Shown piece by piece: positions 13,883 through 15,449 of a stretch of DNA of 64,000 nt (its first letter is position 1; each line of letters starts with the position of its first letter). A program made the translations under genes and the position numbers. The stretch lies in the NCBI RefSeq assembly GCF_003751945.1, contig NZ_RJKL01000001.1, forward strand, positions 6,758,001 to 6,822,000. Reading direction: 5' to 3'. The DNA is from Couchioplanes caeruleus (GTDB lineage: Bacteria; Actinomycetota; Actinomycetes; Mycobacteriales; Micromonosporaceae). The notes beneath the pieces were generated by a model. It did no database searches. It was not told where the DNA came from and saw nothing but the letters and a program-made list of their open reading frames with translations.

Positions 13883-14323
13883 TCAGGTGCGAGCCGGGGA
13901 CCAGGCGCGGTAGTAGACGCGTGCCTCGTATCCGCTTCGGCTCAGGTGCCAGCCGAGGTCGTCGACGTCGAGGATCTCGGGGCGGCCGGCCAGCCAGGTG
14001 GCCGCCATGCCCAGGGTCTCGGCCGGGGTCGCGCCGGTGAAGGTCATGCAGCGGGCCCCGGTGTCGCCGGGCGCGGGTGCGTGGCGGGGGAGTGCCTGCG
14101 CCGTCATGGTCGGCTCGGGGCCGGTGACCACGGCGGTCGCTCCGATCGCCCGGCCGTCGCGGACGCCCTGGACGAACCAGTCGTTGATCGTCTCGTCGTG
14201 CTCGACGGCCCAGCCGCTGACCGAGCCGACGTCGGCGGCGATCGCGTGCTTGGCGTTGTCGAGGGCGGCATCCAGGGTGGCGAGCTCGAAATCCTCGCCG
14301 TTGTACTCGACCCGGTACGTCAT
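13883..14323 (-). CDS. Conserved hypothetical protein (146 aa)
   Basis: A 146-aa soluble protein starting MTYRVEYNGEDFELATL, with an alpha/beta pattern, a VEHDETINDWFVQGVRDG segment in the middle and a C-terminal YYRAWSP. No catalytic motif is recognised. The start ATG 14323 lacks a strong Shine-Dalgarno. It lies between the DUF4241 gene and the Clp-N gene in the same direction, with an inverted repeat behind it. I do not recognise its function. Confidence 0.65.
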   Translation of the reverse strand: MTYRVEYNGEDFELATLDAALDNAKHAIAADVGSVSGWAVEHDETINDWFVQGVRDGRAIGATAVVTGPEPTMTAQALPRHAPAPGDTGARCMTFTGATPAETLGMAATWLAGRPEILDVDDLGWHLSRSGYEARVYYRAWSPART

Positions 14324-14373: not shown

Positions 14374-14979
14374 TCACGCCGCGTCGGCGTGCAGGGAGCG
14401 GGCGAGGTCGGCGCGCAGTTCGTCGGCGTCGACCCCGCGTTCCGCCAGGATCTGCGCGCCTGGGCCCCGCTCCTCGCGGAGGACGCCCAGCATGATGTGC
14501 TCGGGCGCGATGTAGTTGTGCTTGAGGCGGATCGCTTCCCGCAGGGACAGCTCCAGCACCTTCTTGGCCCGCGGCGAAAAGGGGATGTGGCCGGTGCCCC
14601 GCCGGAACAGGCCCTTGCGCTTCGGTGCGGGCTCGCGGGGCAGGTTCAGCGCGCCCGGCCCGAAGTTCTCCTCGATGGCCCGCCGGACCGCGTCCAGGTC
14701 GATGCCGATGGCCCGCAGGGCCTCGCGGTCGGCGGCGTCGGCGTCGGTCGCGGCCGTGCCGGTGTCCCCGCCGGCCCGACGGATGATCTCGGCGCGGGCG
14801 TAGCCGGCGTCGACCTGCTTCTCTCGCAGCGCCGGCGCCGAGGCGACCGGCCCGGCGGGGTCGGCCAGCAGGGCGAGCAGCACGTGCTCGGTGCCGATCG
14901 GTGCGTGGCCCAGCTCGCGGGCCTCGGCCTGGGCGCGGATGACCGTTTCCCGGGCGGCGCGGGTGAATCGCTCGAACAT
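14374..14979 (-). CDS. Clp N-terminal (ClpR) domain protein without ATPase
   Basis: A 201-aa protein that is a free-standing Clp repeat domain. The first repeat covers ~1-70 (MFERFTRAARETVI, then GHAPIGTEHVLLALL) and the second ~130-195 (FSPRAKKVLELSLREAIRL, then YIAPEHIMLGVL). These two repeats form the substrate- or adaptor-binding N-domain of ClpC/ClpA; the AAA+ modules are absent. It may act as an adaptor or decoy for the Clp protease. It follows the HTH gene by a single base, with GGGAGGA (inside the end of the HTH gene) as Shine-Dalgarno, so the two form one operon. Confidence 0.88.
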   Translation of the reverse strand: MFERFTRAARETVIRAQAEARELGHAPIGTEHVLLALLADPAGPVASAPALREKQVDAGYARAEIIRRAGGDTGTAATDADAADREALRAIGIDLDAVRRAIEENFGPGALNLPREPAPKRKGLFRRGTGHIPFSPRAKKVLELSLREAIRLKHNYIAPEHIMLGVLREERGPGAQILAERGVDADELRADLARSLHADAA

Positions 14980-14980
14980 C

Positions 14981-15217
14981 TCAGTCCTCCCGGAGATCCT
15001 GCATCGGCACGCGGCCCGCGTGTTTCTTGTGTACGCCCTGGCGGGTCACCTCGAGGGCGTCCGCGATTTCCTGCCAGGACCAGCCTTTCCGGCGCGCGTT
15101 GGCCACCTGCAGGTGCTCCAGGCCCTCGAGCAGGCGGCGCAGCGCCACCACCGCGCGCAGCCCGACCCGGGGGTCGGCGCTGCCCGCGGCGGCGGCGAGG
15201 TCGGTCGCTTCCGTCAT
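14981..15217 (-). CDS. Small HTH transcriptional regulator linked to Clp-N protein
   Basis: A 78-aa protein. Residues ~45-70 form a helix-turn-helix (GWSWQEIADALEVTRQGVHKK) of the sigma-70 region 4 or MerR-like type. ATG 15217 has no Shine-Dalgarno; instead a consensus promoter places the transcription start at or one base before the ATG, so the mRNA is probably leaderless. Two palindromes overlap that promoter, and autoregulation is the simplest reading. It is cotranscribed with the Clp-N gene. Relatives in other actinobacteria occur in the same pair. The exact regulon is unknown. Confidence 0.82.
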   Translation of the reverse strand: MTEATDLAAAAGSADPRVGLRAVVALRRLLEGLEHLQVANARRKGWSWQEIADALEVTRQGVHKKHAGRVPMQDLRED

Positions 15218-15265
15218 GCATGTCAACCTACGTTGACACGACGAGGATGTCAACCCAGGTTGACA
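15218..15265 (-). promoter_or_regulatory. Consensus promoter inside two palindromic operators
   Basis: On the minus strand TTGACA (15253-15248), a 17-nt spacer and TAGGTT (15230-15225) match the housekeeping promoter; the expected start point is at 15217-15218, the A of the ATG. Palindrome 1 (15221-15238, TGTCAACCTACGTTGACA, 7-bp arms) covers the -10; palindrome 2 (15248-15265, TGTCAACCCAGGTTGACA, 8-bp arms) covers the -35. Centres are 27 bp apart. These are probable repressor sites for the adjacent HTH protein. Confidence 0.75.
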
Positions 15266-15331
15266 CCGCGGGCACGGAAAGGCGCAGGCGTGAGGAAAGC
15301 GCGGAGTGGGGGAAGGCGCGGCTGCGGGCAA

Positions 15332-15390
15332 GCGCGGGGCGGGGGCTAGCGCGGGGCGGGGGCTAGCGCGGGTGCGGGCTGGCGCGGGGC
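15332..15390 (+). repeat. G-rich degenerate tandem repeat (17-bp unit)
   Basis: Two perfect 17-bp copies (15332-15348, 15349-15365), GCGCGGGGCGGGGGCTA, followed by decayed copies. Several runs of four or five G on one strand could form a G-quadruplex. It is intergenic, between the HTH promoter and the VOC terminator. Confidence 0.7.
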
Positions 15391-15449
15391 GTGGGGATGG
15401 GCGAGGCGCGGGGTAGAGCGGGGGCGGGCACGGGGAGAGCGCGGACACG

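What the first reader, a model, noticed from the sequence alone, without database searches (positions are those of the whole stretch)
14374..15265. Leaderless HTH-ClpN operon with two palindromes covering its promoter
A 78-aa HTH protein and a Clp N-domain protein without ATPase form a coupled operon. A near-consensus promoter (TTGACA, 17 nt, TAGGTT) sets the transcription start at the ATG, and two perfect palindromes (TGTCAAC...GTTGACA, centres 27 bp apart) lie exactly on the -35 and -10. This is a compact autoregulated switch in which a DNA-binding protein is paired with a Clp adaptor-like domain; the Clp-N protein could deliver the regulator, or another substrate, to ClpCP.
Basis: partly seen in the sequence, partly recalled or inferred. 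Interest (0 to 1): 0.82.

Follow-up and report, generated by a model that had tools for sequence, protein, structure and literature searches.

The report
Two-gene relative of mycobacterial ClpC2
A small DNA-binding protein and a stand-alone copy of a protease's docking domain are made from one apparently self-controlled promoter in actinobacteria; the pair is a two-gene cousin of a known mycobacterial antibiotic-sensing repressor, and it suggests which part of that repressor reads the DNA.

Summary
The HTH gene (14981-15217, minus), the Clp-N gene (14374-14979, 1-nt gap) and two perfect TGTCAAC-N4-GTTGACA palindromes over the -35 and -10 are there, the only exact copies in the 8.4-Mb genome. 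The design is conserved: 176 of 195 distinct loci carry paired sites, against 2 of 3900 control windows. It is close to something published. Mycobacterial ClpC2 (Taylor 2023) fuses an HTH-like domain to Clp-N, represses its own promoter through paired CGTCAAC-N5-GTTGACG sites and is released by cyclomarin. The window holds a split sister lineage with N4 operators; the same genome also keeps a fused N5 copy. New here: the two-gene form; recognition-helix/operator co-variation, which places DNA reading on the HTH; ClpC2's recognition helix lies between its two crystallised pieces; and a ribbon-helix-helix-like head fused to Clp-N with its own repeated motif. Best reading: an autorepressed decoy/sensor operon responding to ClpC ligands. 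Delivery of the regulator to ClpCP is untested and not favoured. No binding or ligand response was measured.

The parts
14981..15217 (-). HTH gene, 78 aa, start ATG at 15217, stop TGA 14983-14981; predicted recognition helix residues 59-66
   Evidence: AlphaFold2 mean pLDDT 91.6, helices 3-10, 16-43, 48-55, 59-66; profile of 21 relatives (window included) matches ClpC2 N-terminal chain 8ada at E=7.7e-5
14374..14979 (-). Clp-N gene, 201 aa, Clp_N repeats, no AAA+ ATPase
   Evidence: Pfam Clp_N 5.8e-28, no other family at E<=1; closest solved relatives are ClpC1 N-terminal domains, best E=2.3e-31; ClpC1 Phe2 and Phe80 equivalents kept
15248..15265 (.). distal operator TGTCAACCCAGGTTGACA, covers the -35
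   Evidence: conserved in relatives
15221..15238 (.). proximal operator TGTCAACCTACGTTGACA, covers the -10; ends 3 nt before the ATG
   Evidence: conserved in relatives
15248..15253 (-). -35 element TTGACA
   Evidence: sequence
15225..15230 (-). -10 element TAGGTT (TANNNT type), 17-nt spacer
   Evidence: sequence; TA at loop positions 2-3 in 143 of 161 proximal against 3 of 161 distal sites; not found by the sigma-70 scan

Best explanation
The operon is a split (two-protein) sister lineage of the fused autorepressor ClpC2. The HTH protein, as a dimer, binds the two palindromes and blocks its own leaderless promoter. The Clp-N protein is a soluble mimic of the ClpC substrate-docking domain that senses, and at high level soaks up, things that bind ClpC: unfolded or tagged clients, or cyclic-peptide antibiotics of the cyclomarin kind. 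When Clp-N is occupied, repression is lifted and both proteins rise. Shown by comparison: homology of both parts to ClpC2 domains, conserved operators and geometry, co-variation of helix and operator. Inferred: repression rather than activation, contact between the two proteins, ligand sensing, and the sponge role.
For: HTH profile matches 8ada, the ClpC2 N-terminal piece, at E=7.7e-5, and the fused 236-aa frame of the same genome at E=2.9e-10; that fused protein matches 8ada at 1.3e-24 and the ClpC2 Clp-N chain 8ad9 at 6.2e-29. 176 of 195 distinct loci carry a site pair 27-29 bp apart; control 2 of 3900 windows, and 0 of 3900 against 167 of 195 at total mismatch <=3. 154 of 161 split loci with the pair have a second ORF that matches a Clp-N model built without split sequences. 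All 12 fused ClpC2-type loci examined have paired N5 sites, 10 perfect in the core and 2 (L214, L219) with one or two mismatches. Recognition-helix residue X in [S/T]-X-Q against half-site position 2: R gives G in 563 of 576 half-sites, K gives G in 88 of 88 (N4) and 44 of 44 (N5), A gives A in 22 of 32. ClpC1 Phe2 and Phe80 equivalents are both kept in 132 of 161 split Clp-N proteins. Taylor 2023: ClpC2 represses its promoter and cyclomarin releases it.
Against: No binding, expression or ligand data exist here for the split form. The fused and split Clp-N domains are separate lineages (fused clade SH-aLRT 100 in a quick tree), so ligand response need not carry over. 29 of 161 split Clp-N proteins lack one or both aromatic residues. 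A separate Clp-N must contact the HTH for the switch to work as in ClpC2, and nothing here shows that contact. Taylor 2023 assigned DNA contact to Clp-N arginines R185/R189 and found a double mutant weaker in gel shift, which argues for some Clp-N part in binding. 10 of 32 half-sites of the class-A group keep G, and that group is one set of paralogues, so the change may be a single event. 19 of 195 loci have no pair.
Confidence: 0.66

Rival explanations
1. Adaptor model of the first reader: the HTH protein represses, and the Clp-N protein hands the HTH protein or another substrate to ClpC-ClpP, so that regulated degradation controls the operon.
For: Close coupling (gap -4 in 87 and +1 in 30 of 167 split loci with a second ORF) makes linked production likely; Clp-N is closest to ClpC1 N-domains.
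Against: Clp-N is the docking domain of ClpC itself, not a fold known to me as docking onto ClpC; in the studied relative it competes with ClpC1 for a ligand (PMC10030653, section 13).
Confidence: 0.12
2. The Clp-N protein, not the HTH, reads the operator, as Taylor 2023 proposed for R185/R189 of ClpC2.
For: R185 equivalent is Arg in 141 of 161 split Clp-N proteins; the published double mutant binds less DNA.
Against: The R185 equivalent is also Arg in this genome's ClpC (R93), and Taylor found ClpC1 to bind the operator with little specificity; the R189 equivalent is Arg in only 63 of 161 split proteins and Gln in ClpC, while the operators stay much the same; operator base follows the HTH residue.
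Confidence: 0.06
3. Toxin-antitoxin-like module: the HTH is an antitoxin-type repressor and Clp-N its partner.
For: RelI, an antitoxin, is a distant relative of the HTH (9sdc, E=6.3e-8); NAR 2026 suggests that at least some RelI homologues emerged from ClpC2.
Against: The partner is a Clp-N domain, not a RelE-type toxin; Pfam gives Clp_N alone, and NCBIfam gives only sub-cut-off matches to Clp ATPase models.
Confidence: 0.05
4. The HTH is an activator, or the sites belong to another regulator acting in trans.
For: Similar paired sites stand before an alpha/beta hydrolase in some relatives (loci L013, L016, L018), and exact single or paired sites occur at other genes too (L009, L010, L025), so other genes can carry them.
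Against: Sites cover both -35 and -10, the usual place of a repressor; exact sites in this genome occur only at this operon; helix/operator co-variation ties the neighbouring HTH to them.
Confidence: 0.11

Closest known systems
ClpC2 (Rv2667) of mycobacteria, Taylor et al. 2023 Commun Biol, PMC10030653 (abstract, passages, sections 7, 11, 13 read)
   Same: Homologous DNA-binding/dimer domain and Clp-N domain without ATPase; two palindromes with GTCAAC/GTTGAC half-sites over -35 and -10; leaderless start; autorepression shown there.
   Different: One fused protein there, two proteins here; N5 operators there, N4 here; separate Clp-N lineages. Ligand response known there, unknown here.
RelI antitoxin of RelS-RelI, NAR 2026, PMC13284704 (passages and section 22 read)
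   Same: Distantly related small HTH protein; that paper already states a partial similarity to ClpC2 within an HTH region.
   Different: Partner is a ribonuclease toxin, not Clp-N; the authors report no likely inverted repeats upstream.
N-terminal domain of ClpC/ClpC1
   Same: Clp-N sequence and the two aromatic residues of the cyclomarin pocket.
   Different: No AAA+ ATPase domains; longer stretch between the two repeats (alignment).
ClpC3 of Mycolicibacterium smegmatis (MSMEG_3761 in PMC10454040; also PMC10864484, PMC10746685, PMC10914731; passages only)
   Same: Described in PMC10864484 as a small Clp protein that shares the ligand-binding site of ClpC1.
   Different: Whether it has an HTH partner or these operators was not tested; its sequence was not identified here.

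Membership tests
ClpC2 (fused autorepressor) | N-terminal domain homologous to ClpC2 residues 4-72 (8ADA) | tested here: met
   HTH profile against 8ada E=7.7e-5, model positions 16-52 on residues 36-72; the single sequence alone did not list 8ada at E<=1
ClpC2 (fused autorepressor) | Clp-N domain and no AAA+ ATPase | tested here: met
   Pfam Clp_N in 3 stretches, no other family at E<=1
ClpC2 (fused autorepressor) | both domains in one polypeptide | tested here: not met
   two ORFs, TGA-G-ATG
ClpC2 (fused autorepressor) | operator CGTCAAC-N5-GTTGACG | tested here: not met
   N4 here; N5 in 12 of 12 fused loci; same half-site core
ClpC2 (fused autorepressor) | two operators over -35/-10 just before a leaderless start | tested here: met
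   by sequence geometry only, transcription start not mapped
ClpC2 (fused autorepressor) | Clp-N falls in the ClpC2 clade | tested here: not met
   quick tree of 56 rows: 10 fused rows form a clade with SH-aLRT 100; the window lies outside
ClpC2 (fused autorepressor) | binds cyclomarin and is released from DNA by it | not testable with these tools
   F96, F172, E181 equivalents are kept in the window; binding not measured
RelS-RelI toxin-antitoxin | RelE/BrnT-type toxin encoded beside the HTH | tested here: not met
   operon partner is Clp-N
ClpC adaptor protein | binds ClpC and delivers a substrate | not testable with these tools
   no interaction data

The most novel reading that the evidence does not exclude
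In actinobacteria the ClpC docking domain has become a portable sensor of ClpC load or ClpC-targeting antibiotics that is joined, by different routes, to DNA-binding heads which repress their own promoters: HTH in a separate protein (two paralogous operons in this genome), HTH fused (ClpC2), and a CcdA-like ribbon-helix-helix head fused, with TAACCCC/GGGGTTA motifs upstream. The HTH paralogues keep apart through spacer length (N4 against N5) and one helix residue that reads half-site position 2.
Probability: 0.35. Interest if true: 0.82.

Novelty: new variant of a known kind. Interest (0 to 1): 0.64.

Why it matters
It extends an antibiotic-sensing decoy, studied so far in mycobacteria, to streptomycetes and their relatives, a group that includes producers of ClpC-targeting peptides (recalled). 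It splits sensor and DNA reader into two proteins that can be tested separately. It also predicts that the DNA-reading helix of ClpC2 lies at about residues 73-83, between the two pieces that were crystallised (4-72 and 94-252), which would amend the published placing of DNA contact on the Clp-N domain.

Tried and rejected

Loci without a pair or of mixed kind. 19 of 195 had no site pair: L030, L194, L198 (one perfect-core site), L069 and L192 (one site at 1 mismatch, that of L192 far upstream), L065, L073, L223, L224 (one site at 2), L063, L072, L202, L220, L225 (only sites at 3) and L064, L188-L190, L222 (none). L188-L190, L192, L220 and L222-L225 gave no Clp-N hit and are distant HTH families. 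The 176 with a pair are 161 split, 12 Clp-N fusions with N5, L186 and L187 (HTH proteins with another domain; poor sites, and no pair under the stricter core test) and L204 (an HTH-Clp-N open frame with poor N4 sites in a 74%-complete genome, perhaps a frameshift; counted in the 176 but used for no claim about fusions). Of 161 split loci with a pair, 7 lack a confirmed Clp-N second ORF: L145 and L149 lie near contig ends, L068 is weak (E=8.5e-5), L120 and L136 gave a frame without Clp-N, L191 and L193 had no second ORF of 120 aa starting within 150 nt; one search had seen Clp-N in L120 and L149. Samples are not independent: of 195 loci 52 are Streptomycetaceae, 58 are of the window's family by group code and 12 are named Micromonosporaceae.

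Papers: the listings showed no paper on the two-gene form; only open-licence PMC papers are held and only top rows were seen. Hoi 2023 (Cell) was seen only as cited in other papers. Figures of PMC10030653 are not held, so which gene its Rhodococcus alignment row shows is unknown.

Full report
What is there. On the minus strand, 15265 to 14374, lie two 18-bp palindromes, a promoter whose -35 sits in the distal and whose -10 sits in the proximal palindrome, a 78-aa HTH gene and, one base after its stop, a 201-aa gene with Clp_N repeats and no ATPase. The two exact TGTCAAC-N4-GTTGACA sites are the only ones in the 8.43-Mb genome. The best-listed relatives of the genome's fused protein carry names of Actinoplanes and related genera (120 of 8000 scored are listed), so the window is most likely from that group.

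Conservation. 50 of 60 relatives searched (the window's genome included) have an HTH match at E<=1e-3; all 36 of the window's genus in that set have one at E<=1.7e-37. In a draw over the phylum, 35 of 198 genomes, the window's own included, have it at E<=1e-12. Of 195 distinct HTH loci taken from several searches, 176 have two sites 27-29 bp apart; 161 of these are split loci, all with a 4-base gap, spaced 27 (106), 28 (52) or 29 bp (3). In random 190-bp windows of the same loci, 2 of 3900 have any such pair and none at total mismatch <=3, against 167 of 195 real loci. Named genera include Streptomyces, Micromonospora, Dactylosporangium, Amycolatopsis, Lentzea, Nocardia and Rhodococcus, and one MAG is labelled Nitriliruptorales. 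The loci are unevenly sampled.

The promoter. TA stands at loop positions 2-3 in 143 of 161 proximal but 3 of 161 distal sites, as expected if the proximal loop carries a TANNNT -10. All 161 have an in-frame start codon within 6 nt of the proximal site, 156 at 2-3 nt. Leaderless transcription is thus likely, but no 5' end was mapped, and a plain sigma-70 consensus scan does not see this promoter.

Link to ClpC2. Taylor et al. 2023 (PMC10030653; abstract, passages and sections 7, 11 and 13 read) showed that mycobacterial ClpC2 binds cyclomarin with its Clp-N domain, dimerises by its N-terminal domain and represses its own promoter; they describe CGTCAAC-n5-GTTGACG sites, repeated in many of the actinobacteria they analysed, over -35 and -10 with a leaderless start. 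A profile of 21 window-type HTH proteins matches the N-terminal ClpC2 chain 8ada at E=7.7e-5. The window's genome also holds a fused HTH-Clp-N frame (G000:C1:214032-214592) that matches 8ada at 1.3e-24 and 8ad9 at 6.2e-29. Twelve of 12 fused loci examined have paired N5 sites 28-29 bp apart, and the only two exact N5 sites of this genome are at the fused gene. In a quick tree of 56 rows the 10 fused Clp-N domains form a clade (SH-aLRT 100) outside which the window's protein lies; 25 of 53 inner branches of that tree are unresolved. The window is therefore a split sister lineage, not ClpC2 itself.

Which part reads DNA. The 8ada chain is 72 residues long and the profile alignment runs to its last residue, at the end of the first HTH helix. 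In the genome's fused protein, AlphaFold2 (mean pLDDT 86.3) puts helices at 61-68 and 72-79, the second being the recognition helix; the residue equivalent to 8ada's last (V72) is V70. Residues K72, Q73, A74, Q76, K77, R78, F79 and V80 are invariant in the 42 sequences aligned. The other crystallised piece starts at residue 94. The recognition helix thus fell between the two solved pieces. NAR 2026 (PMC13284704; passages and section 22 read) already notes an HTH region in ClpC2; the consequence for DNA contact is my inference. In 185 loci with a site pair and a readable helix, the residue X of [S/T]-X-Q predicts half-site position 2: R gives G in 563 of 576 half-sites, K gives G in 88 of 88 (N4) and 44 of 44 (N5), A gives A in 22 of 32 with G in the other 10. 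The A class (8 loci) is one paralogue group, so this may be one evolutionary change. By contrast, the Clp-N arginine proposed to touch DNA (R185) has an Arg equivalent in ClpC itself, and the R189 equivalent is Arg in only 63 of 161 split proteins. The published mutant data for R185/R189 remain a real argument for some Clp-N part. The dimer salt bridge D46-R57 of ClpC2 lines up with E31 and R42 of the window protein (my reading of the alignment); R42 is invariant and E31 at least 90% conserved in the 34 sequences.

The Clp-N protein. Its nearest solved relatives are ClpC1 N-domains (best E=2.3e-31), nearer than ClpC2 (8ad9, 1.3e-17). ClpC1 Phe2 and Phe80, the equivalents of the cyclomarin-contacting F96 and F172 of ClpC2, are both kept in the window and in 132 of 161 split proteins. 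This allows, but does not show, binding of ClpC ligands. Nat Commun 2026 (PMC12913811, passages) reports that ecumicin and ilamycin bind ClpC2 without inducing it, so binding alone does not guarantee a response.

Wider picture. The genome has a second split pair with CATCAAC/TATCAAC-type sites (HTH G000:C1:6274822-6275028, Clp-N downstream) and a 236-aa protein with a CcdA-like head (E=3.3e-4, just under the Pfam cut-off) fused to Clp_N. That fusion is found at E<=1e-30 in 6 of 121 genomes, the window's own included. In the stretch of about 110 bases shown before each of the 6 genes there is at least one exact TAACCCC or GGGGTTA; the window's genome, L273 and L277 have exact copies in both directions, the other three have inexact partners (read by eye; no chance control was run). 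Only the window's own copy starts within a few bases of the motif. This is the basis of the novel case; none of it has been tested experimentally.

Verdict. The sequence observation is right and not chance. The system is a new variant of a known kind. The repressor part is well supported by comparison, the sensor/sponge part rests on analogy, and the adaptor idea is open but less likely.

Noticed in passing
own genome G000:C1:6867623-6868330 (minus), outside the window; relatives L273-L277: A ribbon-helix-helix-like (CcdA-type, E=3.3e-4, under the cut-off) head fused to Clp_N, with TAACCCC/GGGGTTA motifs before the gene; 6 of 121 genomes searched, own included, have it at E<=1e-30.
   Followed up: partly
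own genome G000:C1:6274802-6275028 and downstream (L005, L217, L237): Second split HTH/Clp-N pair with CATCAAC/TATCAAC-type operators 28 bp apart and an Ala in place of Arg in the recognition helix.
   Followed up: yes
L013, L016, L018 around position 1501-1518: Same-type palindrome pairs before an alpha/beta hydrolase gene in relatives of the genus; in L013 the gene starts right after the proximal site.
   Followed up: partly
L009, L010, L025 around position 1501-1518: Exact TGTCAAC-N4-GTTGACA sites away from any HTH/Clp-N pair; in L025 the site lies between two divergent ORFs, one looking TetR-like by eye.
   Followed up: no
L194 (G109): A related HTH gene with one CGTCAACCATGGTTGACG site is followed by a gene whose product starts like a Sir2-type deacetylase, by eye.
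   Followed up: no
window 15279-15441: Degenerate G-rich tandem repeats (periods 6-50) lie between the operon's promoter and the glyoxalase-like gene.
   Followed up: no
window 13883-14323 (minus): ORF of 146 aa just downstream of the Clp-N gene with no Pfam match at E<=0.01.
   Followed up: no
literature: The name ClpC2 also denotes a Clp ATPase in Streptomyces (PMC12607617, passages); that is a different gene.
   Followed up: no
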